From a virus: 45,702 nucleotides of DNA. The stretch is taken from the IMG/VR virus record IMGVR_UViG_3300035670_000384, positions 1 through 45,702 of that record. One strand, given 5' to 3'. Shown here in pieces: positions 1-45,702 of the stretch. The number at the start of each line of letters is the position of its first letter. The first letter of the stretch is position 1. Made by a program: the position numbers and the translations under genes. The notes beneath the pieces were generated by a model that saw only the letters and a program-made list of their open reading frames with translations, did not search any database and was not told the origin of the DNA.

Positions 1-108
1 TTTTAACATAGGCAACTTAAGCGATGGAACACTGCCCAAACTAGGAGCAGATAATTTACCGCCTGATGTTGTAGCAGATATCTTTTTGTATTCAACATCT
101 ATGGCTCT
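1..108. repeat. Terminal overlap identical to 43351-43458
   Basis: 108 bp exact match ending at a T/C difference at position 109 versus 43459. It is coding sequence for the shared C-terminal part of the A/B virion protein. Together with the second 108 bp match (2284-2391 = 45595-45702) it shows that the contig closes into a circle. Confidence 0.95.
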
Positions 109-3100
109 TAATAGCTGTTCTGCTTGACCTGCTGTTAATACTTTCAGCTCGTACAGCTTTTGGATATCCTTTGCTTTGGCAGATAACTTGCTTTTATAGG
201 TGGATACAAGTTTTTTATCCAGCATTTGATTACCGGTTAATTGAGGTCTTTTTATATCAAAGGAGAGGTCTATTGCTTTGGCAGTACCGCTATCTTCATC
301 AAAATATACATATTTATTTCCAGCCATTTTAGCCTCACCACTTTCTCTAACCTCGTCTCTGGCCGCAGCCTCATCTGCTTTTAGTTTTTTGGCATCTATA
401 ATACCTTTCCATTGTTCCTGAGGTATGTTTGATTTAGGCGTTCCTCTAACTTTATTGATAATATCCTCTGAAAGATTAGTCTCATTTTTCAGGCTTATCT
501 TAGGCTTTCCTGTTTTGGTAGTTTCCATTACAGGATATTGTTTTCCATATGTCTGGGCAGGAATACCAAGTATTGCAGGAATTGAACCTAGTAAACCTTT
601 GGGGCCATGTTCCTTATATAAGTCATAACTATCGGCAAGTACCATGGGTACAAATCTATTTAAAACCTCTACCGGAGCATCAAACTTTTCGCCAATGTTA
701 TTTGAGCCTCTTATATAACTAACAATAAGAGACAGCATGGGATGTTCCTTCATTTCAAAATATCTTGTTATTAAATCCATACGATTTGGTGAGTATGGGT
801 TGTCCTCATCTCCAAGGGTTAGCTTTCTACCTGTAGTGGATGATGTTGCATATCCTTTCCATAATCTGCCCATTAGAACGGCTATCTGTTGATAAGGCCC
901 GTACATGTTAAATCTAGTATTACCTATCTTTACTTTTCCATAATCAGAATTTGTGGGATCATCAGAAACCTCTGCACCGGCTAGTTTTGATAGCTGGGTT
1001 ACTAAGGTTGCTCCCCCCATAAAAGACAGCATTGTAAGTAAGGCCTCTTTTCTTATTTGAGGTTCTTTATTCATATAGTACATTGGATTTAAAGTTTGTA
1101 CTGTTGCTGCAAGTTTTCTTGCTGAAAATAATCCTTGTCCTAAAACAGGGGCTATTCTTTCAAGTTCTCCCAGGCTACCTCTACCTGTAGAAGTGTTAAT
1201 AAAATCTCCCAGGTCTCTTAAATACTTTGGTGTAACCTCTCCCCCGGATACTCTATAGCTGTCTATCATCTGGTCAAAGACATCAGCCCTCATTTTGTTT
1301 AAAAAGCCTGTGTAGGCTCTACCTGATGCCCTTATAACCTTACCTATACCGGGAAACTGTTCTGCCCAGGAGGACATAAACTGTTCCTCTCTCTTACTTG
1401 CAAAATTACCCATATCTGTAATTGATAGCTTTGCATCTTTCATTAGCTGGTAATTTGGTCTTGAGGCTATCTCTGCCTGACTCATTTTAAAAGCATCTTC
1501 GCTAGCAAATAACTTTAATTGCTTTGCAAAGTTTTTAGCTGTAAGAACCGGGTGCCTGTAAGCAAATAGGGCATTTTGCATCATTGTTGCAGATAGGTCG
1601 AATGCACCGGCCATAAATGACCTTGGCAGGTTATACACCTGCATCGCCTTATCACCTAGCTTTTTGAAAACATCTCTTTTATCTAGTACGGTATTGGTAA
1701 ACTCTTTACCAAAAACAGTATTTAATTTTTCAAGCTCACCTTTTGTAGGTACAACCCCACCACCTTCTCCTAGTAGTTTTGCAAGGCCTACCTGTGCATT
1801 TACTTTTTCCCACTCATCAAGAGCATCTGATTTTCTTACCATGTCAAAAAGTCTATCAACACTTTTTTGGTCAAAAGCTTGTCTTACAGACTCAAATTGG
1901 GCTTTGGGTAAATCTCCTTTTAAAGCTCTTAGCTCTTGTACAAAGCCTTTTTCTCCCGCAACCTTTTCTCTAGCATCCATAAGCTTTGCAAGTTTTTGAC
2001 TTCTTGCCTTTGCGTAGAGGCCTTCTTGTGTGTCTCTTATGGTACCGGCATTCTTAAGTTCATCCCTTAACTTTACTATGAGTGCATCATCTGCTATACT
2101 ATCACCATATGACGATATCTGACCTTTTAGAGGAACATCTTGCTGACCACCCAAAGTTGGAGTCTTTCCTGCACCGGGCTTTAGATTTGCCCGAGAGACA
2201 TCCAATCCTGATAGTACCGATTTGGGTACTTTTAGCGTTGGGCTTTGCAAAGTTTGCCCAATGGTTGTTTTGGTAGATGAACTTATCTTACCAAACCCTT
2301 TTGGGAATTTTATATTTTGTTCTGGTATTTTTGCTTTCAAAGTATCTTCAACCGAAGTATGAAGCTTGGGTAGAGTCATTAAAGATTCCGGAGTATTTGG
2401 GAGTTCTTTTAACTGTGGTAGGATTTTTGGCTGTACTTCTTTTACCACTCCTTTTACTTTATTAGACCCGCCACCTATTTCCTTGGCAAACATTTCAAAT
2501 AACTTAGTACCTGATCTACTATCAATCTCACTTAAAGCATCCTGTATTGCACTGATTTGGTTCTTACCTTTAGGTATCTTACCCATTGATAAATACTCCA
2601 TAATTGCCTTGATATAATTCTTTTTTCTTAGTTCAGGAGATAACCAGTCAGGAAAAGTGCTTGCTTGCTCGCCAATAAAATTACCGGCCTCATCTTTTAA
2701 TCTTCTTCCGGGTTCTGCAATATCAAGTTCAGCAAGTATTTGATACCTAGCCTCATCCAAAGGCAATGATTTACTAACATTTTTAAGACCAGCCATACTG
2801 TAACCGAGAATAGGTAGTCCAAAGGTTGCAGCATCAAATGCAAGATCACCTTTTACATTAGTTTTCTCCCCGGCAAGTTTCTTTTTTGCATTATAATATG
2901 CTGTATATGGTAGACCTTGTGTTACATTTCCAACTATCTTAGCAGCAGGTATGGCTAATTTACCCAGCTTTTGAGACTTGCTTAAATTACTTGCAAGTTT
3001 GTACAAAGGCTTAGTAACTTGTAACATTCTAGAAGTTTTAGCAAGTGCATTTCCTATAACAACATCAGGAGCAATATTTCCTATAAAGTGAGCAGACTTC

Positions 3101-3321
3101 TCTTGGACATTTTTTGGTTCGTATGGTTTATACCCCGCAAACCTGTCAAACCTTTCAGGACCTATTAATGTTCTAGGAATATAGGTAGCACCTTTGTAAG
3201 CACCAGATGCAGTGGCAGCAAGATTACCAAACATTTCTCTGCCTGTTTGTTTTAATCCGGGTACTAACCTAGCTCTAATATATTGTTTTATTTTGTCATT
3301 GAAACTTACAGGACCAACCAT
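1..3321 (-). CDS. Large virion protein, allele A (partial in window, continues past left edge)
   Basis: Open reading frame of 1107 codons from ATG at 3321 with no stop before the left edge. Because bases 1-108 equal 43351-43458, it continues in frame at 43350 and stops at 43234, giving 1145 aa. Residues 1-346 and the last 74 are shared with allele B (43234-45702); residues 347-1071 are allele-specific. The protein is rich in Lys, Ala and Leu with hydrophobic helical stretches. Its position between the coiled-coil virion protein and the scaffold is where podoviruses keep large internal/ejection proteins, and the style recalls phage 'large polyvalent' proteins. No catalytic motif was recognised, so function is inferred from position only. 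No Shine-Dalgarno precedes the ATG; the promoter at 3328-3356 puts +1 on the ATG. Confidence 0.75.
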   Translation of the reverse strand, partial: MVGPVSFNDKIKQYIRARLVPGLKQTGREMFGNLAATASGAYKGATYIPRTLIGPERFDRFAGYKPYEPKNVQEKSAHFIGNIAPDVVIGNALAKTSRMLQVTKPLYKLASNLSKSQKLGKLAIPAAKIVGNVTQGLPYTAYYNAKKKLAGEKTNVKGDLAFDAATFGLPILGYSMAGLKNVSKSLPLDEARYQILAELDIAEPGRRLKDEAGNFIGEQASTFPDWLSPELRKKNYIKAIMEYLSMGKIPKGKNQISAIQDALSEIDSRSGTKLFEMFAKEIGGGSNKVKGVVKEVQPKILPQLKELPNTPESLMTLPKLHTSVEDTLKAKIPEQNIKFPKGFGKISSSTKTTIGQTLQSPTLKVPKSVLSGLDVSRANLKPGAGKTPTLGGQQDVPLKGQISSYGDSIADDALIVKLRDELKNAGTIRDTQEGLYAKARSQKLAKLMDAREKVAGEKGFVQELRALKGDLPKAQFESVRQAFDQKSVDRLFDMVRKSDALDEWEKVNAQVGLAKLLGEGGGVVPTKGELEKLNTVFGKEFTNTVLDKRDVFKKLGDKAMQVYNLPRSFMAGAFDLSATMMQNALFAYRHPVLTAKNFAKQLKLFASEDAFKMSQAEIASRPNYQLMKDAKLSITDMGNFASKREEQFMSSWAEQFPGIGKVIRASGRAYTGFLNKMRADVFDQMIDSYRVSGGEVTPKYLRDLGDFINTSTGRGSLGELERIAPVLGQGLFSARKLAATVQTLNPMYYMNKEPQIRKEALLTMLSFMGGATLVTQLSKLAGAEVSDDPTNSDYGKVKIGNTRFNMYGPYQQIAVLMGRLWKGYATSSTTGRKLTLGDEDNPYSPNRMDLITRYFEMKEHPMLSLIVSYIRGSNNIGEKFDAPVEVLNRFVPMVLADSYDLYKEHGPKGLLGSIPAILGIPAQTYGKQYPVMETTKTGKPKISLKNETNLSEDIINKVRGTPKSNIPQEQWKGIIDAKKLKADEAAARDEVRESGEAKMAGNKYVYFDEDSGTAKAIDLSFDIKRPQLTGNQMLDKKLVSTYKSKLSAKAKDIQKLYELKVLTAGQAEQLLRAIDVEYKKISATTSGGKLSAPSLGSVPSLKLPMLK
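2284..2391. repeat. Internal copy of the right-end sequence (45595-45702)
   Basis: 108 bp exact match to the last 108 bases of the window, ending at a T/C difference at 2283 versus 45594. It encodes the end of the N-terminal part shared by alleles A and B. The equal 108 bp length at both ends is what a fixed k-mer assembly overlap produces. Confidence 0.95.
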
Positions 3322-3391: not shown

Positions 3392-4735
3392 TTAATAGCT
3401 ACCGCCGCCGCCACCAAATAGGTCGTCATCATTATTAGACAATCCACCATAATAACCGGCTATATTACTAAGTGGATTAGTGTTTGCAAAACCACTTGTA
3501 AATTGATTACTACTTAGTGTATCAAGATTAGACCCCTGATTTTGTGCAAACATACTATTTATGTCATTTCCCGAGTTCATACCAACCCCATTTGTATATT
3601 GCTGTGCAGCAGTTAGAGCATTTCTAAGCTCAAGATCAGCCTTTACTTTCATAGCCTCTAACTCCTGACCAAAAGACATAAATTGATTTCTAATATTTTG
3701 TATATTTGCATTATAGGACTGCAATGCAGATAGCTTTGCAGCAGCCTTATCCTGTGCAAGCTGGAATCTTTGACTATTAATTTCGTCAAGTTTTTCTTGA
3801 AAAGCCAACTTAGCCTGTGATAATGCAGCATCTTTTTGCATAGTAAGGCTTTGAATCTTTGCATCAACTTCATTTTTTAAGTCAAGACCCCTTTGTACCA
3901 ACTTATTTACGGTATTTGCAACATTTTGTTTAATCTGCCCAAAGTTCTGCATCATTGATCTGCCAAGTAATTCCCCGGAAGCCTGACCTACAGATGAATT
4001 TCCCGCACCACCAAAAGCCTGCCTATTCCTTGCATCTAGTTCATTGTATAAATTTCTAGCAGAATCCAGTGCCGACTGCTCTCCTTGATAAGCCTCTGAT
4101 TTTGCGGTATTGATAGCAGCATTTCCCTGCTCATAAGCCTGATTAATCAACGGTATTTGTGCTTCATAAGGTGCTGTAAAAGTATTATAAAAGTCATTCT
4201 GTGATCCATACAGAGCTTGCTCTATTTTTGATAAAAAGTCCATGCCTTGACTGTAGTTCTGATCTATTAAAGCATCCTCTTGGGCTTTTCCGGATTTTAG
4301 ATACTCCAAATAGTCTGAACCAGTACCACCATATTTATCAAAATAATCTAAGTAACCCTGTGTTTGTTTAAGATCGGATAATCCAAGGACATCCCCGGTA
4401 TTTGTAACTGATAGCCTTGCGCCATCTACATCGAACTCGTGAGTAATATTGGTTGGATTATTAGTTTTAAACTCACTAGAGTCATTTGTAGTATTAGAAA
4501 AATCTTTTACAGATGTAGGTACAGATGTTGGTGTACCGCTTGTATAATAATTAAGTGCAGTGCTAGCCGCAGGAAAAATATATTCATCCAGCGTGCTTCT
4601 ATCTTGCGACTCACTCAATGAGCTGTCATCAGCAAGAAAGCCGAATTTATCCTCTGTCCAGCCAAGTTCCGGTAGCCTAAAGTTTGTAAAAGGTATTTTC
4701 CAATTTCCCGGTCCATAATAATCCATAAATGCCAT
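3392..4735 (-). CDS. Coiled-coil virion/ejection protein candidate
   Basis: 447 aa, ATG at 4735 with no Shine-Dalgarno but with the phage-type promoter immediately upstream. The first 120 residues are Ser/Thr/Asp-rich. Residues about 150-380 are Ala/Gln/Lys-rich and look strongly helical. The C-terminus is Gly-rich and ends in GGGGGSY. It lies between portal-associated genes and the A/B virion protein. Long Ala/Gln-rich helical proteins at this place in podovirus genomes are often ejected internal virion proteins. I did not recognise a family; the virion role is inferred from position and composition. Confidence 0.7.
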   Translation of the reverse strand: MAFMDYYGPGNWKIPFTNFRLPELGWTEDKFGFLADDSSLSESQDRSTLDEYIFPAASTALNYYTSGTPTSVPTSVKDFSNTTNDSSEFKTNNPTNITHEFDVDGARLSVTNTGDVLGLSDLKQTQGYLDYFDKYGGTGSDYLEYLKSGKAQEDALIDQNYSQGMDFLSKIEQALYGSQNDFYNTFTAPYEAQIPLINQAYEQGNAAINTAKSEAYQGEQSALDSARNLYNELDARNRQAFGGAGNSSVGQASGELLGRSMMQNFGQIKQNVANTVNKLVQRGLDLKNEVDAKIQSLTMQKDAALSQAKLAFQEKLDEINSQRFQLAQDKAAAKLSALQSYNANIQNIRNQFMSFGQELEAMKVKADLELRNALTAAQQYTNGVGMNSGNDINSMFAQNQGSNLDTLSSNQFTSGFANTNPLSNIAGYYGGLSNNDDDLFGGGGGSY

Positions 4736-5009: not shown

Positions 5010-5310
5010 TGTCCCTATCCCTTTTTTCTAAAAGATGCCTTAAAATGTCCTCCTGCTGATGCATAATCTCTAAAAACTGCTTAACAACCTCGGTTGCACC
5101 TCTAGCAAAGGTGTAATCTACTGCGATCACCTCCCAATTATTGTACTTTTCGTCTTTAGGATTAGGATAATACCCCTGTGCTAGGGATGCCAGCAGGGTT
5201 TCCGCTTGCTTCCACCCCGGCTGTTGCATCAAATCCACTAATATTTGAGATTTTTTGATTTCTGCCTCTTTGTCCTGTACCGGCTTGTCCTTGAATAGCT
5301 TGTTGAACAT
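4981..5310 (-). CDS. Hypothetical head-region protein overlapping portal
   Basis: 109 aa. Its ATG follows a strong AGGAGG Shine-Dalgarno (spacing 4-5 nt) that lies inside the portal gene, so the first 149 nt are read out of frame with the portal C-terminus. The product is helical, with Gln/Glu/Lys-rich ends; no known domain was recognised. The overlap and shared block suggest co-expression with portal. A start at an internal Met (5229) would still overlap the portal and has no better ribosome-binding site. Confidence 0.65.
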   Translation of the reverse strand: MFNKLFKDKPVQDKEAEIKKSQILVDLMQQPGWKQAETLLASLAQGYYPNPKDEKYNNWEVIAVDYTFARGATEVVKQFLEIMHQQEDILRHLLEKRDRDNVQNGRIGQ

Positions 5311-7177
5311 TTGCCTCCTGTAAATCTTCTAAATACTTTTCAGGGTTAGGCTCTCCCTCGTTGTGCATTATCTTTAAAATAAATTCAGATATTCTAAGTC
5401 TTTTACCCTCCTCCATTAAGCCTTGCTTAATATTAGGATTGATAAGCATATCGAGCATTCTTACTTTGGACTGCGCCCTTTCAGCACCTACACCAAGCGC
5501 CATAGACTTAACATCGGGAATATAATCAAGTTTCATATCTACCGGTAAGTCATCTTTGGTCACATATAAAGTGCCGTAATCCTCGGATTCTTCAAACTCA
5601 AGTTTTTTCTTGATATCAAAATTCTCCGGATTCTTTTCCCTTGGATTTAATATAACAGGATATTTTGGTAAAGTTATAGACTTCATAGCATTTCTTAACG
5701 CCATCTGGTCCATACCGCCCGACTTGTCTACAGAATCTACCAAGTAAGCCATTGCCTCATCACTGATGTCATTATCATTTAATCCAAGTTCTTTTAACTG
5801 ATCCAGCATATCCCTACCAACTATCTTAAAAATAATATGGTTTTTGGTAGGATCAGAAAATAGAAACTCCTGATTATTAGTAACCCAAAACATCATTTGA
5901 TCTTTTAAGGATTCTGATAAATACAACTGATTTTGCTGATCTCTTGATTGCCTCTGCCTTGCAGTATCCATTACCTCTGTTGCAGTCTTATCAGCTTCCC
6001 TAAAATCAAAGTTGGAAAGACCTTGGCTGGTTTCTCCAAGTGCAACATCTATAGCGGATTTAATAGCAGGTACAGCAGTTCTATAACCGGCGATTGCCTG
6101 ATCCCCCGTTCTATGCTCCGCAACATTATTGGGATTGCTACCAATAAGCCATATTGCGTTAGGGCCATAATCTAGGGTATCAAGCCTTACCTCATGGTTA
6201 TTTGCAACCTTAATAGGAGGATTCATACTAAGGTTTATTGCATCTATATAACTGCAATGAAAAGCATTTAAGGCTCTTGCCAAAGATATAATAGGCTCAA
6301 CCTCACTGTCTCCATACACATCATCACCCACCGGATAATATCTAAGCTGTATAACAGGTATTTTTTTAACAGGTAGCGGAGTATCTGACTCGCCAACCTT
6401 TATATCGTGATTAGGAGTAAAGAAATACCATTTATCTTTTCTATATTCAGTTACAAACTCAATAATAGGAAATGCACTATCATCCCCAATCCTGTCCTCC
6501 AACTCCCTCATTTCTTTTACAGCAGAATTATAATTTACTGCCCGCCTATCCGACTGGTAAGACTTGGATTCCAAGACTGATTTTAACTCGTCTAGGTTAT
6601 TATATAAATTACCGCCTACCAGCTTATTTCTTTCCTCTAACTGTTCATAGGTTAAATATTCTCTAACCTGTACCCAATTAGCATTTTTTATATGATTTGC
6701 TGACGGATCAATAAAGACATCCCTATTATCCAATACCTTAAATTCATTACCCTCATACTCACCTGATGTTTTCCAATAAACTAAACCAAAACTTGCACCA
6801 AACAGCCTTGTTTGAATATCCATTAATGCCCATTTCTCCAGCATTGAACCGCCATCATCAGCAGCATCCCATTGATAATCTAGGATGGCATTATGTATCT
6901 TTGCCTTTACAACATCGCCACCCTCTCTTGGTATCAGTTTACCCCTTAGCTTTGCATTAAACAGTCTTGAGTTTTTTTCCAATATTTTAGTTCTGATAAT
7001 AGGGTCGGTTACTTGTGATAAATAAGGCCAGTCACTAGGCAGATATCCATGGTATTCTCTTAAAATATCATCCCAACCATTATGTCTGGTTTTTCTGATT
7101 TCCATGTCCTGCTTGCCGACCTGATAGTGTTCTAAAAGCTCTGTTAAAAGCGTATCATTCTTATTTGATTTAGCCAT
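5162..7177 (-). CDS. Portal protein
   Basis: 671 aa, the usual size for P22/T7/phiEco32-type portals, which form the 12-subunit ring at the packaging vertex. Recognised from position directly after the large terminase and from typical text: an N-terminal region around WPYLSQVTDPIIRTK, a middle rich in aromatic and Tyr-Tyr-Pro segments (QLRYYPVGDDVYGDSEVEP) and a Gln/Gly-rich disordered C-terminus. ATG at 7177 has no Shine-Dalgarno; the phage-type promoter 7184-7212 puts +1 on the ATG. The last ~50 codons also encode the start of the 109-aa protein in another frame. Confidence 0.85.
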   Translation of the reverse strand: MAKSNKNDTLLTELLEHYQVGKQDMEIRKTRHNGWDDILREYHGYLPSDWPYLSQVTDPIIRTKILEKNSRLFNAKLRGKLIPREGGDVVKAKIHNAILDYQWDAADDGGSMLEKWALMDIQTRLFGASFGLVYWKTSGEYEGNEFKVLDNRDVFIDPSANHIKNANWVQVREYLTYEQLEERNKLVGGNLYNNLDELKSVLESKSYQSDRRAVNYNSAVKEMRELEDRIGDDSAFPIIEFVTEYRKDKWYFFTPNHDIKVGESDTPLPVKKIPVIQLRYYPVGDDVYGDSEVEPIISLARALNAFHCSYIDAINLSMNPPIKVANNHEVRLDTLDYGPNAIWLIGSNPNNVAEHRTGDQAIAGYRTAVPAIKSAIDVALGETSQGLSNFDFREADKTATEVMDTARQRQSRDQQNQLYLSESLKDQMMFWVTNNQEFLFSDPTKNHIIFKIVGRDMLDQLKELGLNDNDISDEAMAYLVDSVDKSGGMDQMALRNAMKSITLPKYPVILNPREKNPENFDIKKKLEFEESEDYGTLYVTKDDLPVDMKLDYIPDVKSMALGVGAERAQSKVRMLDMLINPNIKQGLMEEGKRLRISEFILKIMHNEGEPNPEKYLEDLQEANVQQAIQGQAGTGQRGRNQKISNISGFDATAGVEASGNPAGIPSTGVLS

Positions 7178-7633: not shown

Positions 7634-8935
7634 TTATTTTATACGCCATCTATCAAAATTATTTTGTCTTGGAATATAAACAGTTTCGGAGTGGTGGCTT
7701 GCAGGTACTACTTCCGGGAGTTCTACTGTGAGATAAGCTAGCGCATCCATAGCATGATCGTTTATCTTCATAGGCACTTCTTTTACAGCTTGGCCATCTT
7801 TAACCTCGGTATATTCATAGCTTTCAAATTCCCGTATTGTATTAACACAATTAGAAAATATAAACAGCTTTCCATTTTTTAATTTCTCGCTTACCTTTCT
7901 AATCTTGTATTGCTGCCACCCCTCGTTATTACTGCCATGTATTTTTTGTACTGCTTTTACCGGGATCAAGTATTTATTAATTTCCTCTATATCTGATTTC
8001 TGTGCTGAATCCCCCACTGTAAAAGTGAACATCCTGCCAATGCTTTTTTGCTTTATTAGCTGGGCAAGATCGGGAGTTTGAAGCCCTGACGAATATATCT
8101 CATCATATACATACATTATCCCTTTATAATCTATAGCCACAAAGACTACTGCGCTGGGATTTACAAAACCAAAGTCAATTCCCCTGTAATAACTCCAATC
8201 AGATTTAAGCTCTATAGGCTCTATAACATTAGTATCTCTGTCAAACTCTTTATACACCAGTCCTGCAAATCTTTTAAATTCAGCAAGATACTCCTGTGCA
8301 AATGAATCCTCGTCTAGTTCTGCTCTTGCCTGCTCTATTTCTTTTTTTGGAATATGGGGATTGTCATAGCTTGTGAACCGCCAAGATTTCCACATGGGAT
8401 CAATGTTGCCCTGCCCTTTTTTCCAAAGATCGTAGAAATGATTATAGCCAACCGGAGTAGAGATAAAAATAGCCGGAGCAGAGTAGTCTGTAAGAGTAGG
8501 CCTTAGTGCTTCCTCCCATACATCCCGCCAATTACGCATTTGTGCTATTTCATCTACTATCAATCCTCGCAGCTTAACCCCCCTTAACCTATCAGGATTC
8601 TCTGCTGATCTTAGAGATATCCTTGATCCGTTTTGCAGTGTAAGTTCAAGCTCTGCCTCGTTTTTTTTAGTTACCCATTTAGACGGTATTTCATTTAAAA
8701 AGCCCTGCTTCCAGTGAATATCCTTGCCCATGCTAAAAGTAGGCGATACTATCCAGTAGTCACCCGGTGTTTGAGTTGCCCATTTAAGCACCATCATCCT
8801 TGATAGTACAGATTTACCCCACCTACGCCCTGCTGTGATGACTTTGAACCTATGCGGATCAGTAGCCACCTTAAATTGCCCACCAGAGTGGAGCTTTACA
8901 TTTATAGATTCTTTTTTTCTTTGTACAGGTAACAT
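7634..8935 (-). CDS. terL: Terminase large subunit
   Basis: 433 aa packaging ATPase/nuclease that drives DNA into the prohead through the portal. Walker A is GRRWGKS (about residues 36-42); Walker B/catalytic Glu is in GLIVDE; the RNase H-like nuclease Asp residues are in GIDFGF, VGDSAQ and NDHAMDALAYL near the C-terminus. Length is typical. ATG at 8935 has no Shine-Dalgarno; it starts 4 nt after the stop of an 80-codon frame (8939-9181), so coupling is possible. The next gene downstream is portal, separated by a structured non-coding stretch. Confidence 0.93.
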   Translation of the reverse strand: MLPVQRKKESINVKLHSGGQFKVATDPHRFKVITAGRRWGKSVLSRMMVLKWATQTPGDYWIVSPTFSMGKDIHWKQGFLNEIPSKWVTKKNEAELELTLQNGSRISLRSAENPDRLRGVKLRGLIVDEIAQMRNWRDVWEEALRPTLTDYSAPAIFISTPVGYNHFYDLWKKGQGNIDPMWKSWRFTSYDNPHIPKKEIEQARAELDEDSFAQEYLAEFKRFAGLVYKEFDRDTNVIEPIELKSDWSYYRGIDFGFVNPSAVVFVAIDYKGIMYVYDEIYSSGLQTPDLAQLIKQKSIGRMFTFTVGDSAQKSDIEEINKYLIPVKAVQKIHGSNNEGWQQYKIRKVSEKLKNGKLFIFSNCVNTIREFESYEYTEVKDGQAVKEVPMKINDHAMDALAYLTVELPEVVPASHHSETVYIPRQNNFDRWRIK

Positions 8936-14316: not shown

Positions 14317-14605
14317 TCTTTTTAGTCTTTTTCTTTACAACTTTATTACCTTTACCAACAGTCCACCCCTCGTTTTTAGTAAGCACATACCACCCGCACA
14401 CATCGCATTTTCTTAAAAATACTCCCGGAGTTAGCATCCCCATCATATCCGCCTCCGTAAAGGTAGGCGCTGCAACAACATGCTCGCTACAAGGCTGATC
14501 TTGCCTTTTAATTTTTGCCTCCTTGATGACATGCTTTACAAAAGCCTTATCATCCTTTTTATTCTTTTTTTTAGTAATCCATTGCAATAAGTTTTTTATA
14601 TTCAT
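14285..14605 (-). CDS. Lys-rich protein with a Cys motif (106 aa)
   Basis: From the ATG at 14605 (an in-frame upstream ATG at 14665 lies further inside the previous gene). The start reads KNLLQWITKKKNKKDDK; the middle has a CDVCG motif in a tryptophan-rich segment; the tail is Lys-rich and basic, suggesting nucleic-acid contact. Only three Cys are present, so a full zinc finger is uncertain. Overlaps both neighbours. Confidence 0.45.
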   Translation of the reverse strand: MNIKNLLQWITKKKNKKDDKAFVKHVIKEAKIKRQDQPCSEHVVAAPTFTEADMMGMLTPGVFLRKCDVCGWYVLTKNEGWTVGKGNKVVKKKTKKNGKVSKNKRS

Positions 14606-15092
14606 TGTAATAACAATCTGTTTTGTAAACACTCCAGGCACCGTATCCTTGTGAAAGCCATACATTATAGGCTAGCTCCACATTCTTTTCAGGATTAAAT
14701 ACTTGGCTAGGAGCATAACTATGTACTGAATTTATCTGTAATAAACCACCACTCCACGAGCCGTTTGGTTCTAGTTTTATGGCTTCCGGGTTTAGCCTGC
14801 TTTCGCAAGTAGCAATAGCAATCATTACAGGGTAATCCCACTCGTAGCGGTCTTTACAGATGTACTTTGTAACATCACCAACGCAATACATATTCTTGTT
14901 ATCGGCAGTTTGCCAGCTAACAACCGGGCTTAATACCGTCATTTCAGAATATGCTTGCACTGTATTTTTGTTTGCAAAGTACAGGTATAATGAAACTGCT
15001 AGGGCTAGAGCAATTAAAACTGCTGCCACGCATCTTTTAATTTGTTTTTTTAGCCTTAGCACTTGTTTGTATTTTTTAGTTCGCTTATCCAC
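14571..15092 (-). CDS. Membrane-anchored lytic transglycosylase/lysozyme-like protein
   Basis: 173 aa from GTG at 15092, with GGAGGTGA 8 nt upstream. A basic cytoplasmic end is followed by one membrane helix (about residues 22-40), then an extracytoplasmic lysozyme-like domain: catalytic Glu in IATCESRLNP (about residue 98), GLLQINS, and the closing NVELAYNVW...GYGAWS typical of goose-type/SLT folds. It cleaves peptidoglycan glycan strands. Its place in the early operon, far from the lysis cassette, suggests a role other than burst, such as local wall opening or superinfection effects. Confidence 0.75.
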   Translation of the reverse strand: MDKRTKKYKQVLRLKKQIKRCVAAVLIALALAVSLYLYFANKNTVQAYSEMTVLSPVVSWQTADNKNMYCVGDVTKYICKDRYEWDYPVMIAIATCESRLNPEAIKLEPNGSWSGGLLQINSVHSYAPSQVFNPEKNVELAYNVWLSQGYGAWSVYKTDCYYNEYKKLIAMDY

Positions 15093-18556: not shown

Positions 18557-19504
18557 ATGTCCGTGAGCCTATCATTTGCACAGTGGCTCTTTTCACAAGG
18601 TAGACATAAGAATACGGTTGCGCTTCACCTTAAAAAGTTAAGGGTCATAAAGAGAAAATTAAATAAAATAAATTACTCAAACTGCCTAAAAATGATAAGC
18701 TCCATGAAAGAGGGCGGATATTCCAATGCTACAATTAATCACTATGTCGGCACTATGCGTTTATACGGCGTATATAAGAATATCCCGGAGTTAAATAATC
18801 TAAAATTTTTTTCTAAAAAAAGTGCATTAAAAGGCACACTAAGCGATGAGGAGATAGAGAATTTTATTAACCTTCCTAGACCTCCAAATATAAATAAGGA
18901 TTGTTGGGAATTGTTTTCTCTGTGGTTGGAGGTCTTAGCGTACACCGGCTGTAGACCGGGAGAGGCGGCAAATCTTACTATAAATGATATAGACTTTGGT
19001 AGAAATGTTATTATTTTTAAATATACAAAAACCGATGAGCCTAGAGTAGTGGGCATAGCTCCCAGACTTGCAGAGCATTTAAAAGAGCATGTAAGTAAGT
19101 GTGAAAACTATTTATTTTTAACAAAGCAAGGACAAGTTTATTCAGATCATAGCTGGTTACATAGATTTAATAACAGAAAAAAGATTTTAGGCATTAAAAG
19201 AAATAATATTACCCCTATGAGTTTTAGGCACAGCTTTGCAACAAGAATGTTAGAAAAGGATGTCAATATTTATAAGGTTGCAAAGATACTTGGCCATGAT
19301 ATAAAAATGACACAGCAATATGAACATCTGACTGTAGAAGATGTAAAGACTGCTATGAATAAACACCCTTTAATTAAAAAACAAATAAAATTTTCAAAAC
19401 AAGAAGTTATAAAAATACTATCCGAGGTTTTAAATGATATAGGTCTAGTGTATGAAACTAAATTAAAAAATGAGCATGTCTTACTAAAGATTAGATGCCC
19501 TTAA
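18557..19504 (+). CDS. int: Tyrosine-family site-specific integrase
   Basis: 315 aa. A SAM-like core-binding N-terminus is followed by the catalytic domain: Arg in YTGCRPGEA (about residue 133), Lys in KYTKTDEPR, Arg in MSFRHSFAT, His in KILGHDIKMT and the nucleophile Tyr in QQYEHL (about residue 256). The usual first His of the H-x-x-R motif is Met here. It integrates phage DNA at the tRNA-derived site 100 bp upstream. The ATG follows AAGGG at very short spacing; a GTG two codons later is an alternative. Confidence 0.92.
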   Translation: MSVSLSFAQWLFSQGRHKNTVALHLKKLRVIKRKLNKINYSNCLKMISSMKEGGYSNATINHYVGTMRLYGVYKNIPELNNLKFFSKKSALKGTLSDEEIENFINLPRPPNINKDCWELFSLWLEVLAYTGCRPGEAANLTINDIDFGRNVIIFKYTKTDEPRVVGIAPRLAEHLKEHVSKCENYLFLTKQGQVYSDHSWLHRFNNRKKILGIKRNNITPMSFRHSFATRMLEKDVNIYKVAKILGHDIKMTQQYEHLTVEDVKTAMNKHPLIKKQIKFSKQEVIKILSEVLNDIGLVYETKLKNEHVLLKIRCP

Positions 19505-24085: not shown

Positions 24086-24114
24086 TAACTAAAAAACTTA
24101 AATAAAAATTTCAA
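24086..24114 (-). promoter_or_regulatory. Phage-type late promoter before fibre gene
   Basis: TTGAAA (24109-24114), 17 bp, TAGTTA (24086-24091), then TTAATT-ATG; +1 at the ATG, 24079. The -35 box overlaps the last codons of the preceding gene. Confidence 0.7.
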
Positions 24115-26057
24115 ACTCTGGTGTCAGATGCTAGGCTACCCTCCTGTAATGGTTGTGCTTTAGCTTTCATACCTAAAAATTCCCAATCACTATTTGAGCC
24201 TGTGGAAACAACCTCTACTTGTAGAACTCTTGCCAGCTTAAATAACTGCGCCCATTTGATTTCTTCTTCACCTGAAATGCTTACTGTTCCGTCTGAATCT
24301 CCCCACTGAATACTACCCCACTGATCCATACCCCAACCTGAACCTCCTAATGCACCTGTAATAGCAAATGTTTTTTGAGTTACAGATAAACCGTTCCTAT
24401 CCTCTATTCTTATATTTACAGCTAAACTTCCCTGTACATTTCTAAAAAGAGTGGAAACTGATTTAAGCACTTTCATTACAGTCCAATCACCAAAGTCATC
24501 TTTTTTTGTTCTTAATATTTTATAAATAGCAGTACCGCTATCGTTATTTAGACTGTTGCTAAATTCCTTTACATAGCCGTTATCTGTTCCTGCCAACCAC
24601 TTTTCTACTCCTGTAGAATCATAATATTTTAACCATGCTGTAATTCCCCAAGGAGTTTTCCAAGGACCCATTATTGCTCCCCGTCTTTGAAAATCGTAAG
24701 TCATAGTTTCTTTTCTTGACGGAAAGGATACTATATACCTGTAATCTATGTATTCAGCCGATGCTTCTTGTAGATCGCTTACAGTTAATGACCTAAAATA
24801 CGGTCTTACTTTTACTGATAGTTCTTTTGTTCTTAATTGCTGTAGATATGCTTGTTCCTGACCCACTGTATGCAAGCCGTCAACTCCCAAAAAGAAAGTA
24901 TTATTATTTACATTTTTTATAGTCTTATGAGACGAGCAGCCTACCGGAGCTAACATTTGTGTTTGCGGATCAAGTATAAGATAGTTTCCTATAGTTACAC
25001 TTTTTAAAACAATTTGGTGGACACTTCTATTCATAAATACTAGAATAGAGGCGGGTACAGTTCCCCCTTGTGTCTGCGATCCGGCTATCCCAAGACCTGT
25101 AATTTCATCACCTGCATCGGGAGCAATCCTTACATAACCACCACCATCTGCCCAATGAAATCTATCCTGATATGGATATCTTCCTGATATATATACTATG
25201 GTTGGATCACTGGCTATGCCTGCTATTATTAGCCTATCGTCAAAGCGCATGATATACTTTGCATTTAATCCTGCCGTATTGTTTGAATTGGGCGGAAATT
25301 TAATATCGCTTTGCGGAGTACCATAATCTATAAATTCTGTAGTATCAGGCCCTACTGTGCCTATAAATGTTTCGTTACCGGGCGATCCTCTGTATATGTT
25401 ATAACCACCACTTGCTGCTGTAACCTTTGCCCATGATACATTAATTGATGTATCGTCTAAGTTTTGAGGCAGACTAGCATAGGAAACTGCTGTTGATCCC
25501 GTAGTTTCTGCAATTAGATTTTTTGCTGTTATTCTCCATGAATATGTATTTATTCCTGTAGCACCTGATATATTAGATACTGCCACACTTGTAGGTACTG
25601 GCACTGTTGCATAGGTTAGAAGATTTGTGCCATCATACTTGACCATTGGGCCATTACCGCCAACAACATAAGTGTTAAGTCCTAGTTGTGCAGAATTGGC
25701 AGTATAGCCGGAAGCAAAAGATGCACCTGTTATTTGAGAATAACTTGCACCCGATTTAGTAACCATATACCCATCGTCAGTAATGGCTAATATGTTATTC
25801 ACTGAATTGGTGGAATCTTTAAAAAAATCAAGTAATCTAACATATCCTGAACCTGCCCAAAAGTAGTCTTGTGATCCGGGTCTACCTGTAGGTACTCCTC
25901 TACCGGCAAGTATGAGATTATCTGCTTGTGCTAATTCGTTTGGTTTTAATTCAGTAGGTCTAAATATTGTATTTAGTCCGCCTGAAAAATCATCGTACTC
26001 GATTAACCTATCTTTATTTGCCTTAAATTCCTTTACTCCGCCACCCAGTATTGGCAT
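24111..26057 (-). CDS. Tail nozzle / stabilisation-type protein with Fn3-like domain
   Basis: 648 aa. The start (YDDFSGGLNTIFRPTELKPNELAQADNLIL) is typical of podovirus tail nozzle/stabilisation proteins that thread DNA through the tail end. Residues about 150-260 look like a fibronectin type III domain (INTYSWRITAKN ... GYNIYRGSPGNETFIGTV). The rest is beta-rich with propeller-like repeats. Follows the 217-aa gene by 3 nt. Confidence 0.65.
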   Translation of the reverse strand: MPILGGGVKEFKANKDRLIEYDDFSGGLNTIFRPTELKPNELAQADNLILAGRGVPTGRPGSQDYFWAGSGYVRLLDFFKDSTNSVNNILAITDDGYMVTKSGASYSQITGASFASGYTANSAQLGLNTYVVGGNGPMVKYDGTNLLTYATVPVPTSVAVSNISGATGINTYSWRITAKNLIAETTGSTAVSYASLPQNLDDTSINVSWAKVTAASGGYNIYRGSPGNETFIGTVGPDTTEFIDYGTPQSDIKFPPNSNNTAGLNAKYIMRFDDRLIIAGIASDPTIVYISGRYPYQDRFHWADGGGYVRIAPDAGDEITGLGIAGSQTQGGTVPASILVFMNRSVHQIVLKSVTIGNYLILDPQTQMLAPVGCSSHKTIKNVNNNTFFLGVDGLHTVGQEQAYLQQLRTKELSVKVRPYFRSLTVSDLQEASAEYIDYRYIVSFPSRKETMTYDFQRRGAIMGPWKTPWGITAWLKYYDSTGVEKWLAGTDNGYVKEFSNSLNNDSGTAIYKILRTKKDDFGDWTVMKVLKSVSTLFRNVQGSLAVNIRIEDRNGLSVTQKTFAITGALGGSGWGMDQWGSIQWGDSDGTVSISGEEEIKWAQLFKLARVLQVEVVSTGSNSDWEFLGMKAKAQPLQEGSLASDTRV

Positions 26058-26720: not shown

Positions 26721-26749
26721 TAACTAAAAAAATCAATAAAATATTTCAA
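26721..26749 (-). promoter_or_regulatory. Phage-type late promoter before tail adaptor
   Basis: TTGAAA (26744-26749), 17 bp, TAGTTA (26721-26726), then TTAGTT-ATG; +1 at the ATG, 26714. Its -35 box overlaps the stop of the tail fibre gene. Confidence 0.7.
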
Positions 26750-29763: not shown

Positions 29764-29999
29764 TATTCCTCCTCTAAATAAGGACAAATTTCGTATCTAA
29801 CACCATCAAAGGTCATATTTATACAACATTGCCCACACCTATTACATTCGCCTTTTCTTTCCTCGTTTTCAAAATAATAAGAACAAGTAGGCAAGGCTAT
29901 AAGTTGGCTAGGTATCTGCGGATGCGTTTTACAAATATCTGGTCTATTTTCGTAAATAGCACATCTATAAGTTTTACCCACTTCTATTTTATCTACCAT
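29763..29999 (-). CDS. YkgJ-like cysteine cluster protein, motifs in permuted order
   Basis: 78 aa with seven Cys. CAIYENRPDICKTHP (about residues 13-27) is the second motif of YkgJ-type zinc/iron-sulfur proteins, and CNRCGQCC (about 52-59) with a following CPYLEE is the first; in usual family members the CxxCGxCC part comes first. Preceded by GGGAGAT. It lies between structural genes, its stop touching the tail fibre's start. Metal binding is likely; the job is unknown. Confidence 0.6.
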   Translation of the reverse strand: MVDKIEVGKTYRCAIYENRPDICKTHPQIPSQLIALPTCSYYFENEERKGECNRCGQCCINMTFDGVRYEICPYLEEE

Positions 30000-31777: not shown

Positions 31778-31806
31778 CTACTAAAAAAAAATTATAAGAA
31801 TTTCAA
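31778..31806 (-). promoter_or_regulatory. Phage-type late promoter after glycosylation island
   Basis: TTGAAA (31801-31806), 17 bp, TAGTAG (31778-31783), then TTAATT-ATG; +1 at the ATG, 31771. The -35 box is inside the last codons of the last glycosyltransferase gene. Confidence 0.7.
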
Positions 31807-37823: not shown

Positions 37824-37827
37824 ACTA

Positions 37828-40201: not shown

Positions 40202-40208
40202 ATCTAGG

Positions 40209-40237
40209 AATATAACAATGTCGTTATTTATTGTCAA
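40209..40237 (-). promoter_or_regulatory. Canonical promoter of glycosylation/sigma operon
   Basis: TTGACA (40232-40237), 17 bp, TATATT (40209-40214), 7 nt to the ATG at 40201. Near-perfect host-type promoter, unlike the TAG-type boxes of the virion genes. Confidence 0.75.
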
Positions 40238-40253
40238 TCGGTAAGTTAGAGTG

Positions 40254-41292: not shown

Positions 41293-42210
41293 TTATCCTA
41301 GCAGGTTATAGCCCGTTCTCTTTACTGCATGACGCTGACCTAATGATTCTAAGGTTAGCTCTGTGATGTAGTGACCTTTGTCTGCATCGCCTGATTTTGC
41401 TAGTGACTCCCATTTCGGTTGTCTGCCTTTCAAAAAGGCCATTCTAAACATTTCGGGTTTAATTGCATAGACTGTGGTTGTACCAGCAGTATTACGAACA
41501 TCCTTGTGAGGTACTATTGTAACCATACCAGCGCTACCTTCATATACAGATATGTTTCTGAATAATTTATCGGTTTCGTTGACATAATTGGTTATGTTAG
41601 TTGTAAATCCAGAGATTTTTCTCTTGATTCCCATTGTAACGAGCATTGTATCGGCTACATAACTTGCGCCTACTTCATCCCAGCTCTCCTGAACGATATC
41701 CTCTAATTCGGTTACACTCATAGAAGTACCGGATGATCTTGCAGTTACATTAGTAGAGATAACTCCGTCAATTCCTGCCATGCCTCTTGCGACACCAGAC
41801 ACACCTGCGCTAGGTCCTGCACCATTGAGTAATGAATACTCCATGTCGGCTGATAGTAATTTAAGAGATTGTCTCTTTTGGAAAGCGAGAGGATTCTCAC
41901 CATTTGCAGTAGCAACAGCTTGATCCGTACCTGTTACCTGTACGACTCTTGAAATAATTGCCGTATAGTTATTTGATTTGGTAGGAGCTGACAAATCGAC
42001 TACTGTAGCATCCGCACCCTCTGCCCTGTAGGTTACAGATGTGGGTCTGCTAAGATGATACACTGTCCACTGATGGAGTGGTTGTAAAGCGGTAGAAGTA
42101 CCTAATTTACTAACCAAGTAATTTCCATCCAAAGGAGAGGTATCTTTCAAAATGGAGAGTAAGGATTCCCTCATATCTCCCTGATCGTATGTTTGCATTC
42201 CTATGGCCAT
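41293..42210 (-). CDS. Major capsid protein (SU10/phiEco32 type, DUF5309-like)
   Basis: 305 aa. LLSILKDTSPLDGNYLV, VTYRAEGADATVVDL, YTAIISRVVQVTGTDQAV, ADMEYSLLNGAG and a late AFLKGRQPKWESLAKSGD follow the usual order of this HK97-fold family. GAGGTGAT precedes the ATG. It directly follows the scaffold gene by 28 nt, the standard capsid arrangement. Confidence 0.85.
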   Translation of the reverse strand: MAIGMQTYDQGDMRESLLSILKDTSPLDGNYLVSKLGTSTALQPLHQWTVYHLSRPTSVTYRAEGADATVVDLSAPTKSNNYTAIISRVVQVTGTDQAVATANGENPLAFQKRQSLKLLSADMEYSLLNGAGPSAGVSGVARGMAGIDGVISTNVTARSSGTSMSVTELEDIVQESWDEVGASYVADTMLVTMGIKRKISGFTTNITNYVNETDKLFRNISVYEGSAGMVTIVPHKDVRNTAGTTTVYAIKPEMFRMAFLKGRQPKWESLAKSGDADKGHYITELTLESLGQRHAVKRTGYNLLG

Positions 42211-42238: not shown

Positions 42239-43114
42239 TTAACCTAAATCCCCCGTTACTTTCGATAACCTTTCATCTAAAGCTGCGGTGTCTCCTTGCA
42301 GGGTTTTTTCCCTTAAATCTGAATAAGATGCCGTCTGTCTAGGCTGGCCCTTATTCGGAGATACAGCACCAGCAGTAGCTTTCTTAGCTTGAGACTGCTT
42401 GAAATCATCAACAGCTTTTTTTTGCTCGGCCACTAAGTCCACCGAGGGCTTGTAAATCTTGGAAACATCAGCAGCAACTTCAGCTACCGACTGATCCTTG
42501 CCCGTTACCATATTGCGTAAAATTCTATCCCGGACTAATTCATAGCCCTGCGGATCAAATGTATCGCTTTGCGGATTAAGCCAAGGGTACTTTTGGTGTG
42601 CCTCTGCTACCTGCCTTTTTTCCTCAATTTGTTGCAACTTCTGAACCGCCGCCGTAGCACGCTTATTAGCTTGGTCTGCCATTTTATTAGCATCTCCTAA
42701 GGCCTTGTTCATAGCTGCAATATTCACAGTTCCATCATCACTGATAAACTGATCTACTATGTTGTCAACTTGTCGTTGATTCAGGTTAGAGTATTCAGTA
42801 GCTTTAGGTCTTTGAACCTGTTGCTCCTGTGGACTCTGCACCCGACCATTTAAATAGTCAAATACGGAATCACCGTACTCTGATCTCTCGTACTTCTTTA
42901 ACTTGTCTGCAAGCTCCTGATTTGTTTTCTTTAGCTTTTCAAACTGTTCCTTTGTACGATCACTTACTTCTTCTGGAAGATCGCCATCTTCTCCATCGGT
43001 TTCGGTAGGTTGTTGATCTGCATCCGGCATAGATGCATCCTGTTGACCTTCTACAGGATCGGGATTGGCGTTTCCCTCGTTGCCTTCATCTTGGATTACT
43101 TGTGTTTCATCCAT
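42239..43114 (-). CDS. Scaffold protein
   Basis: 291 aa, very acidic first 55 residues, then a long helical/coiled part (EQFEKLKKTNQELADKLKKY), Gln/Ala-rich middle and basic C-terminal end (QSAQ KKAT-type), the usual character of podovirus scaffolding proteins that shape the prohead and leave it. Directly upstream of the capsid gene. AGGAAAGG precedes the ATG by 9-10 nt. Confidence 0.8.
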   Translation of the reverse strand: MDETQVIQDEGNEGNANPDPVEGQQDASMPDADQQPTETDGEDGDLPEEVSDRTKEQFEKLKKTNQELADKLKKYERSEYGDSVFDYLNGRVQSPQEQQVQRPKATEYSNLNQRQVDNIVDQFISDDGTVNIAAMNKALGDANKMADQANKRATAAVQKLQQIEEKRQVAEAHQKYPWLNPQSDTFDPQGYELVRDRILRNMVTGKDQSVAEVAADVSKIYKPSVDLVAEQKKAVDDFKQSQAKKATAGAVSPNKGQPRQTASYSDLREKTLQGDTAALDERLSKVTGDLG

Positions 43115-43233: not shown

Positions 43234-45702
43234 TTATAGGGGATTTCTAAGAGAATCTAAATCTATATTTGCCGGTTTAGGCATTTGATATTTTGCATTT
43301 GATAACTTGGGTGGCTGTAATACCCGTTTTGGTATCCTTGCTGTACTTGCTTTTAACATAGGCAACTTAAGCGATGGAACACTGCCCAAACTAGGAGCAG
43401 ATAATTTACCGCCTGATGTTGTAGCAGATATCTTTTTGTATTCAACATCTATGGCTCTCAACAACTGCTCTGTTTGTTGAGCATTTAAGATTCCAAGCTC
43501 ATATAAAGTGGTAACATTTTTTGCTCTTGAAGACAGCTTAGTTTTGTAGGAGGATGCCATTCTCTTATCTAAAAGTGTGTTACCTGAAAAAACAGGTCTA
43601 TCTGGCATTTCTAAATTTAATGAATGAACCCCCTCACTATCGGTATATAGCAACTCACCATCAATAAAAGCGTACTTAACCCCGCTAGGCGAAGTTTGAA
43701 TCTTTCCCGATTTATCTTTTCCTCCACTTTCCAGCTTCTTCTTGATGTCATTTTTTACTGCATTAATTTGCAACCGGCTTTTTCTATTTTTCAAAGCCTC
43801 CGAATACATAGAATTATCTTGCCCAATATCATAAGGTAAGGCATTATTTACAGGCAATCTTGTAGATGGATTTCCCATAGGATCAGTATAGGCAGGTAAG
43901 GACTTAGACATAAAAGGAATGTCTTTTTTAAAAGAATTTATAAATCTATCAACATTTCCGCTACCCCCCGGCTTTCTATATATGGGATCTACTACAGTGC
44001 TTATATATCTAAGCAATCCCTGCATAGGCATAATCTGCCCTGCTGTAAAGGCAAGATTGCCGGGTATTGAATAATCAGCGTCCCCACTAAAAAATTTCAC
44101 AAAATTATCTAATCCCTGCATAAATGTTTGGCCTGAAAGTAACTTTGTAAGGCTTGTAACTGCACTCACAGCCTTATCCACTTGGCTATCTGTTAGTGCA
44201 TTTCTATCATCCTCCTGATAATATTTCATGGCAGCAGGCATACCCAAAGCTAAAGCAAATGGTCCAAAGTACATCATGGGTATCCACTTATCACCAACCT
44301 TTACAGAAAAAGGTTTTTTACCACTAGCATAAAACAATTCTTTTTCTTTTGAATCTGTTGGAGCATCCCAAGTAGTTCTATCATCGGCAGCCAATACTGC
44401 GCCCATAGCAAATACAGTTGAACCAAACAATACCTTTCCTATTTGTTCCCGCCTATTTGCAGTTCCGGGTATTGTTGCTATCCCAGCAGGTGAATACTCA
44501 ATCCACTGCTTAGCAACATTCATGGGAGTTCTTATAAAAGGCACAAACCATCTAACCGCCTTTGGCGCTTTGTATGTCCAGTCGGTTACATCATCGATCT
44601 TATTTAATAACCAGCCCTGTCCTTGAGGATGCAAGTCCTGTCTAAAGAGAGAATACTCCGCTATATCCTCTGCCTGCTTTGCACCTGTTCCAATAGACCC
44701 CTCACCACCAGATATAAGTGTCCTAAAAAATACATCGGTAGCCTCTAAAGCTCGTGTGGGGATCGTCATAAATTTTGGTAACTTGCCTGTAGATACTGTA
44801 CTAAGATCGGGTTTTCCAGCAATAGACCCCTCTTTATAAGTTTTTATAAAACTACCCACCGCATCAGGTAGCGACTTTAATGTGCCGGAGGTGTATTTTA
44901 CAGCCTCTTTTGGCTTACCAGAAAAAAATAGTGTACCGGGGCGAGTAACAAATGTTTGAAACGCATTGCTGTAAGCATTCCTAAGATAAGTTTTTGGATT
45001 AGACAACATATTATTATATCTAAACTCATCTAAAATATCGGTAAATGTTGCAGGCTTAAATTTTCTGTAAAATGTAGCTACGCTACTCGCATTATTAAAA
45101 TCAACCTTGGATGCCTCTGCTGTAATTGCAACAACATCATCCGATGTTTTTAAAATATTTTGAATCAAATCTACTTTTAATTTCTCGGATGGCTTTAATG
45201 TAGATACATCTATATTTCTTTGTCCTAAAAGCTGGGCAATTCCCCTCGCAAATTCAGCGTCCCTTTTTATAGAATTAATAAGTTCAGGGGTTACTTGATT
45301 TTGATTTGCTAACTTAGCAATATTTTCTCTTAGTCTAAGCTGTGCCGCACCTAACTCTAGTACCTGCTCACGACCAAGCTCATCCACAAGTATTTTATTA
45401 GTATCATCTGCATATTTTATAACCTCATCAAAGGAAATGCTATTTCCCACTGCCTTTTCAAATTTGGGAGCTACATCCTTAATGGCCTGCTGTAAAACTT
45501 CGTTATCGCCACCCAGCTTGCCAACATTATATTTAGAAGTAGTGCCACCAATATTGACTTTTGCATTTTTTATGGTATTATCCGGCTGTGCATCTATCTT
45601 ACCAAACCCTTTTGGGAATTTTATATTTTGTTCTGGTATTTTTGCTTTCAAAGTATCTTCAACCGAAGTATGAAGCTTGGGTAGAGTCATTAAAGATTCC
45701 GG
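43234..45702 (-). CDS. Large virion protein, allele B (partial in window)
   Basis: 823 codons open to the right edge with stop at 43234. Its first part is identical to allele A's 2284-2391, so the whole gene reads 1132 aa with the N-terminus at 3321. The first Met here (45690) is an internal residue. Allele-specific middle of 712 codons: helical, with a hydrophobic stretch near RWFVPFIRTPMNVAKQWIE and IGKVLFGSTVFAMGAVLA that could be a membrane-active segment, unlike allele A. The last 74 residues are shared with A. Probably an ejected or internal virion protein. Confidence 0.75.
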   Translation of the reverse strand, partial: PESLMTLPKLHTSVEDTLKAKIPEQNIKFPKGFGKIDAQPDNTIKNAKVNIGGTTSKYNVGKLGGDNEVLQQAIKDVAPKFEKAVGNSISFDEVIKYADDTNKILVDELGREQVLELGAAQLRLRENIAKLANQNQVTPELINSIKRDAEFARGIAQLLGQRNIDVSTLKPSEKLKVDLIQNILKTSDDVVAITAEASKVDFNNASSVATFYRKFKPATFTDILDEFRYNNMLSNPKTYLRNAYSNAFQTFVTRPGTLFFSGKPKEAVKYTSGTLKSLPDAVGSFIKTYKEGSIAGKPDLSTVSTGKLPKFMTIPTRALEATDVFFRTLISGGEGSIGTGAKQAEDIAEYSLFRQDLHPQGQGWLLNKIDDVTDWTYKAPKAVRWFVPFIRTPMNVAKQWIEYSPAGIATIPGTANRREQIGKVLFGSTVFAMGAVLAADDRTTWDAPTDSKEKELFYASGKKPFSVKVGDKWIPMMYFGPFALALGMPAAMKYYQEDDRNALTDSQVDKAVSAVTSLTKLLSGQTFMQGLDNFVKFFSGDADYSIPGNLAFTAGQIMPMQGLLRYISTVVDPIYRKPGGSGNVDRFINSFKKDIPFMSKSLPAYTDPMGNPSTRLPVNNALPYDIGQDNSMYSEALKNRKSRLQINAVKNDIKKKLESGGKDKSGKIQTSPSGVKYAFIDGELLYTDSEGVHSLNLEMPDRPVFSGNTLLDKRMASSYKTKLSSRAKNVTTLYELGILNAQQTEQLLRAIDVEYKKISATTSGGKLSAPSLGSVPSLKLPMLKASTARIPKRVLQPPKLSNAKYQMPKPANIDLDSLRNPL
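43351..43458. repeat. Copy of window start (1-108)
   Basis: Exact 108 bp match to the left end; marks the downstream junction of the A/B variable segment. Confidence 0.95.
45595..45702. repeat. Right-end overlap identical to 2284-2391
   Basis: Exact 108 bp match; marks the upstream junction of the A/B variable segment and joins the right end to position 2392. Confidence 0.95.

What the first reader, a model, noticed from the sequence alone, without database searches (positions are those of the whole stretch)
1..2391. One gene present in two alternative forms; contig is a circle that traverses both
Left-end 1-108 equals 43351-43458 and right-end 45595-45702 equals 2284-2391, each exactly 108 bp. 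Joining either way closes a circle (43,350 or 43,311 bp) and keeps a single virion-protein gene open, with 346 shared N-terminal and 74 shared C-terminal residues but a fully different 725- or 712-residue middle. The 39-bp size difference is in frame. A population carrying two exchangeable central modules of one ejected/virion protein suggests selection for variation (host range or defence evasion) and may be allelic exchange or an active switch.
Basis: seen in the sequence. Interest (0 to 1): 0.85.

Follow-up and report, generated by a model that had tools for sequence, protein, structure and literature searches.

The report
Phage DNA-ejection protein with swappable core
The sequence comes from a virus of bacteria in which one large protein, probably injected into the host ahead of the viral DNA, apparently exists in two versions with identical ends but unrelated middles; relatives of the virus swap the same middles, so this is a clear population-level example of a kind of variation already known for such proteins.

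Summary
1-108 equals 43351-43458 and 45595-45702 equals 2284-2391. Either join leaves one open frame (1145 or 1132 aa) with 346 shared N-terminal residues and 74 shared C-terminal codons. The middles are not wholly different: their last ~77 residues are homologous (43%, E 4e-14), so the unrelated part is ~640 residues. Two equal 108-bp overlaps fit a fixed-k assembly path through both arms of one bubble in a circular graph, i.e. a mixed phage population.

Core B is a T7 gp16-like ejection ('internal virion') protein. Core A matches no profile, but has relatives in the same kind of gene. Across the family, A and B cores each occur with two N-terminal types and two tail types, in all four combinations. 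A third core (LPD38-bearing) fills the slot in some of the closest relatives. The swap is therefore real in nature, whatever reads would show here.

No junction repeats, silent copy or dedicated recombinase was found: an active switch is not supported. Ejection-protein mosaicism and population variability are published; SieA-type exclusion is a plausible, untested driver. Verdict: genuine, a new variant of a known kind; co-existence needs reads.

The parts
2284..3321 (-). shared N-terminal part of the gp16-like ejection protein (346 aa), ATG at 3321
109..2283 (-). core module A (725 aa); the first ~640 aa are specific to type A, the last ~77 aa are a homologous tail
   Evidence: relatives L009 (53%) and L034 (57%)
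43459..45594 (-). core module B (712 aa), T7 gp16 / internal virion protein D type; the last ~77 aa are a homologous tail
43234..43458 (-). shared C-terminal end (74 aa plus stop)
1..108 (-). end overlap identical to 43351-43458 (C-side junction of form A)
45595..45702 (-). end overlap identical to 2284-2391 (N-side junction of form B)
3392..4735 (-). gp15-like partner by position (447 aa); homologues precede the gp16-like gene in relatives
42239..43114 (-). 291-aa protein downstream, probably scaffold by position; same place in six relatives
41293..42210 (-). major head protein
   Evidence: phrog_1328, E 3.9e-48
5162..7177 (-). portal / head-tail connector
7634..8935 (-). large terminase
24111..26057 (-). 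tail tube-type protein (weak Hc3 match), used as bait for relatives
18557..19504 (+). tyrosine integrase (temperate phage)

Best explanation
The contig is a single assembly path through a circular ~43.3-kb temperate phage genome in which one gene differs between co-sampled phages. The gene encodes a gp16-like ejection protein. Its N-terminal 346 residues and its C-terminal tail are constant; the ~640-residue core between them has been replaced by recombination between phages, on the C side inside a conserved tail domain and on the N side in a linker. By analogy with T7, the constant ends would dock the protein to the gp15-like partner and the rest of the virion, and the core would be the part that meets the host inner membrane and cytoplasm. 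Exchanging it would change compatibility with the host or evade prophage-encoded exclusion. Shown: the two forms, open frames, the family-wide exchange of the same cores, and B's kinship with internal virion proteins. Inferred: co-existence in one sample, ejection of A, the role of the ends, and the selective cause.
For: Exact overlaps of the same length at both ends and single open frames. B matches phrog_6651 internal virion protein (E 1.7e-23) and annotated internal virion proteins of Desulfovibrio, Roseobacter, Synechococcus, Prochlorococcus and Pelagibacter podophages. Same slot (terminase - portal - gp15-like - this gene - 291-aa protein - major head protein) in six relatives, where it holds B-like or LPD38-type cores. 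N-termini of L009 (core A) and L002 (core B) are 35% identical, E 1e-38. L034 (A) and L040 (B) share another N-terminal type, E 3e-13. Tail classes T1 (window, L009 A, L002 B, L040 B) and T2 (L034 A, L003/L004/L038 B) each carry both cores. Published: gp16-like proteins are mosaic (PMC8954989), and P22 gp16/gp20 changes overcome SieA exclusion (PMC10883804).
Against: No reads: co-existence and ratio unseen. Only 108 bp of shared sequence is proven outside each module, so the two parents could differ further along. Core A matches no internal-virion profile, and AlphaFold models of both cores are poor (pLDDT 44-45), so that A does the same job rests on allelism, slot and tail homology. No near relative of this genome was found in the viral collection, so no third allele could be sought there.
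Confidence: 0.75

Rival explanations
1. Chimeric contig: two different phages share the ends of this gene and some of the genome, and the assembler joined part of one to part of the other. The two forms are real, but their backbones are not one genome.
For: Only 108 bp beyond each module is proven to be shared. Relatives of this group are mosaic elsewhere too.
Against: The circle closes either way with correct frame and with the gene order of six relatives; identical 108-bp overlaps at both ends fit one bubble.
Confidence: 0.13
2. Active switch: each phage can exchange its core by site-specific recombination or from a silent copy.
For: Discrete alternatives with constant ends; the phage carries a tyrosine integrase.
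Against: Junction repeats no longer than chance, direct or inverted; no match of the junctions to the integrase region above chance. No second copy within the circle. C-side boundary lies in ordinary diverged homology.
Confidence: 0.03
3. One molecule or one cell carries both forms: a dimer, a concatemer, or a host with two prophages.
For: The contig itself reads A - rest - B; the phage is probably temperate.
Against: As a free linear molecule both ends would lie inside the gene; a dimer would need two identical 41-kb arms. Two prophages in one strain cannot be excluded.
Confidence: 0.07

Closest known systems
T7 gp16 / internal virion protein D (phrog_6651)
   Same: Core B matches the profile near its C-terminal half; large size; follows a gp15-like gene; one hydrophobic helix in core A, two in core B.
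   Different: No transglycosylase domain found at the N-terminus; core A has no match; the gene lies between portal and major head protein here, not after the tail tube gene as in other relatives.
Mosaic ejection proteins of P22-like phages (gp7, gp20, gp16)
   Same: Temperate phages whose ejection proteins vary far more than their neighbours; HK620 and CUS-3 have gp20 98% but gp16 26% identical (PMC10883804); greater variation in injection genes noted for epsilon34 relatives (PMC2629481).
   Different: Here the swap is inside one gene, both ends kept identical, between cores with no detectable sequence kinship, apparently inside one population.
Metaviromic islands / hypervariable regions of marine phages
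   Same: Internal virion proteins are among the genes that vary within natural phage populations (PMC3909814; HTVC010P region cited in PMC10504331).
   Different: Those are seen as low read recruitment; here two discrete alleles are assembled and their modules traced through a family.
Large polyvalent protein domain 38 (LPD38, PF18857)
   Same: Sits in the core of the protein that fills the same slot in close relatives L054 and L062.
   Different: Not detected in core A or core B even at loose thresholds.

Membership tests
T7 gp16-like ejection / internal virion protein | profile match to internal virion protein family, form B | tested here: met
   phrog_6651 E 1.7e-23
T7 gp16-like ejection / internal virion protein | profile match to internal virion protein family, form A | tested here: not met
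   no PHROGs or Pfam match; form A is filed here only by allelism, slot and tail homology
T7 gp16-like ejection / internal virion protein | gene position next to a gp15-like gene in the virion gene block | tested here: met
   (gp15-like assigned by synteny, no profile)
T7 gp16-like ejection / internal virion protein | hydrophobic membrane-type helices in the C-terminal half | tested here: met
   A 760-778; B 731-749 and 784-802 by hydropathy; prediction only
T7 gp16-like ejection / internal virion protein | N-terminal peptidoglycan hydrolase domain (T7; absent in P22) | tested here: not met
   no Pfam match in residues 1-346; not universal in the class (PMC8954989)
T7 gp16-like ejection / internal virion protein | protein is in the virion and is ejected | not testable with these tools
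   needs virion proteomics or an infection assay
Site-specific variation cassette (invertase, shufflon, retroelement) | repeats at the boundaries and a dedicated recombinase or reverse transcriptase beside them | tested here: not met
   integrase is 15 kb away; about 30 of the window's proteins were scanned, the smallest ones and most of the sugar block were not
Site-specific variation cassette (invertase, shufflon, retroelement) | both alternatives present in one genome | tested here: inconclusive
   no second copy inside either circle; reads needed
Metaviromic island | low read recruitment over the variable part in its own habitat | not testable with these tools
   no reads

The most novel reading that the evidence does not exclude
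The core of the ejection protein is a type-determining cassette: a few discrete, sequence-unrelated core types (A, B and an LPD38 type) circulate on constant ends and are kept together in one population because resident prophages or hosts block the commoner type at DNA entry.
Probability: 0.2. Interest if true: 0.75.

Novelty: new variant of a known kind. Interest (0 to 1): 0.45.

Why it matters
Phage diversity studies look mostly at tail fibres. Here the variable part appears to be a protein that acts after binding, while DNA enters the cell. If two core types coexist on one backbone, they form a natural allele pair for asking what hosts and resident prophages recognise at DNA entry, and which parts of gp16-like proteins dock to the ejection channel (constant ends) and which face the host (core).

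Tried and rejected
Searches for near relatives with the N-terminal part, the terminase and exact junction-flank patterns found none, so no third allele could be seen in the same lineage. The single genome-collection scan gave one contig, in a Micrarchaeota bin, which does not identify the host. Structure prediction of both cores was too poor to compare folds; only the last ~130 residues show the same helix - three strands - two helices order, so no fold search was run. Global alignments of A-type against B-type cores score slightly above shuffles (z 0.1 to 4.2) and sometimes align a shared K-[IV]-G motif after a hydrophobic helix: very remote kinship is possible, not shown. Codon usage and GC3 do not tell which core is the newcomer. 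Apparent homology of shared residues 290-346 to A-type relatives is low-complexity linker alignment, and that stretch alone has no significant match; it was not used. Some relatives' contigs end at the start of or inside this gene (L027, L031, L033), but no test for enrichment was made. Active switching was considered and rejected.

Full report
Observation. The two end overlaps are exactly as described: 1-108 = 43351-43458 and 45595-45702 = 2284-2391, each 108 bp and not extendable. The gene is on the minus strand. Form A reads 3321 to 109 and then 43458 to 43234 (1145 aa); form B reads 3321 to 2284, then 45594 to 43459, then 43458 to 43234 (1132 aa); neither has an internal stop. The exact repeats of 25 bases or more are the end overlaps plus a few 25-mers, among them a short repeat at 26928/27216 in another gene, so no second exact copy of either middle was seen.

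Correction to the observation. The middles are not wholly different. Their last ~77 residues are 43% identical (E 4e-14) and the DNA is 59% identical over the 150 bp before the C-side junction, where identity jumps to 100%. EQLL just before the junction is the same in both proteins with different codons. Upstream of this tail the two cores have no detectable kinship by BLAST or by profile-profile comparison (probability 0.6%; the best local match in larger alignments is the tail). At the N-side junction there is no residual similarity.

What the contig means. A path core A - rest - core B whose two ends each stop exactly 108 bp inside the shared sequence is what a fixed-k assembler gives when a circular genome has one bubble (inference). 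What is strictly proven is 108 bp of shared sequence beyond the outer edge of each module. A chimera of two phages that differ further along remains possible, as does a host with two prophages. Reads would decide. The genome record is a single virus contig classed as linear.

What the protein is. Form B matches the PHROGs family 'internal virion protein' (phrog_6651, E 1.7e-23) and annotated internal virion proteins of Desulfovibrio phage ProddE, Roseobacter, Synechococcus, Prochlorococcus and Pelagibacter podophages. These are gp16-like ejection proteins, which are expelled into the host envelope to build the DNA entry channel (PMC8954989). Form A matches no family, but has relatives: L009 (53%), L034 (57%) and, remotely, a 1582-aa protein of MW202497 (27%). 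The phage also encodes terminase, portal, major head protein, an M23 peptidase, a DnaB-like helicase and a tyrosine integrase, so it is probably temperate.

The family. With the tail-type protein 24111-26057 as bait, 31 viral loci and one contig in a Micrarchaeota bin were found. In several of them a gp15-like / gp16-like gene pair follows the bait gene directly. In the closest group (L051, L052, L054, L057, L058, L062) the order is that of the window: terminase, portal, small gene(s), gp15-like, [large protein], 291-aa protein, major head protein. The large protein in that slot is B-like in L052 (phrog_6651), remotely B-like in L051 and L057, and of a third type with Pfam LPD38 in L054 and L062 and their relative L058. 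The third type also follows the gp15-like gene in L022, and in L037 as a separate frame.

Exchange across the family. N-terminal type 1 occurs with core A in L009 and with core B in L002 (35% over 319 aa, E 1e-38). N-terminal type 2 occurs with core A in L034 and core B in L040 (E 3e-13). Tail type T1 occurs with core A (window, L009) and core B (window, L002, L040); tail type T2 with core A (L034) and core B (L003, L004, L038); no BLAST match joins T1 and T2. All four combinations occur for both pairs of modules, which requires recombination. L032 and L033, ~87-91% identical over most of the aligned backbone, lose similarity 63 codons into this gene. The window therefore shows inside one apparent population what the family shows between species. 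Tail and N-terminal classes are defined at BLAST level; remote kinship between classes is possible.

Mechanism. In T7, the N-terminal part of gp16 binds the gp15 tube and the large C-terminal part is thought to cross the inner membrane and reach the cytoplasm (PMC8954989). In P22, gp16 and gp20 must match each other (Sf6 gp16 alone fails, Sf6 gp16 plus gp20 works), and changes in both overcome the SieA exclusion protein of resident prophages (PMC10883804). Since forms A and B here apparently share one gp15-like partner, I infer that the constant ends keep the protein compatible with its own particle while the core faces the host. The likely route is ordinary recombination between co-infecting or resident phages. 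A dedicated switch is unlikely: junction repeats are no longer than chance, the integrase is 15 kb away and its region does not match the junctions above chance, and no invertase or reverse transcriptase turned up among the proteins scanned.

Relation to what is known. Ejection-protein mosaicism is published for T7- and P22-like phages (PMC8954989, PMC2629481, PMC10883804), and internal virion proteins are listed among genes that vary within natural phage populations (PMC3909814; a hypervariable region with an internal virion protein in HTVC010P is cited in PMC10504331). What is added here is a discrete two-core alternative with constant ends inside one gene, with the modules traced in all combinations through a family. 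I rate it a new variant of a known kind.

Noticed in passing
window 31792-40309: A long block of genes between the head and tail genes, including a TPR / glycosyltransferase-type protein (38390-40309); parts of it recur in most relatives. It may modify host or virion sugars.
   Followed up: no
window 40666-41241: HNH endonuclease gene right after the major head protein gene; it was not matched at that place in the relatives compared, so it may be a recent insertion.
   Followed up: partly
window 26746-29787: 1013-aa protein, fibre-like by position, with an internal direct repeat of at least 27 bp at 26928/27216 (288 bp apart).
   Followed up: no
window 14571-15092: Small protein with one hydrophobic N-terminal helix and a transglycosylase (SLT) domain, in the replication region and not with the ejection genes.
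   Followed up: no
L041 (JAHKLX010000105.1): Phage tail and ejection genes of this family in a contig binned as Candidatus Micrarchaeota: misbinned phage contig or an unexpected host.
   Followed up: no
L054, L062 (and relative L058): LPD38 'polyvalent protein' domain in the ejection-protein slot of L054 and L062, which suggests that some LPD38 proteins of phages act as ejection proteins.
   Followed up: partly
L029:13191-17459: The gp16-like protein of L029 carries an HNH-endonuclease-like stretch at residues 1110-1163.
   Followed up: no
L037:2961-4880: N-terminal part and LPD38-type core lie in two different frames: a split gene or a sequencing frameshift.
   Followed up: no
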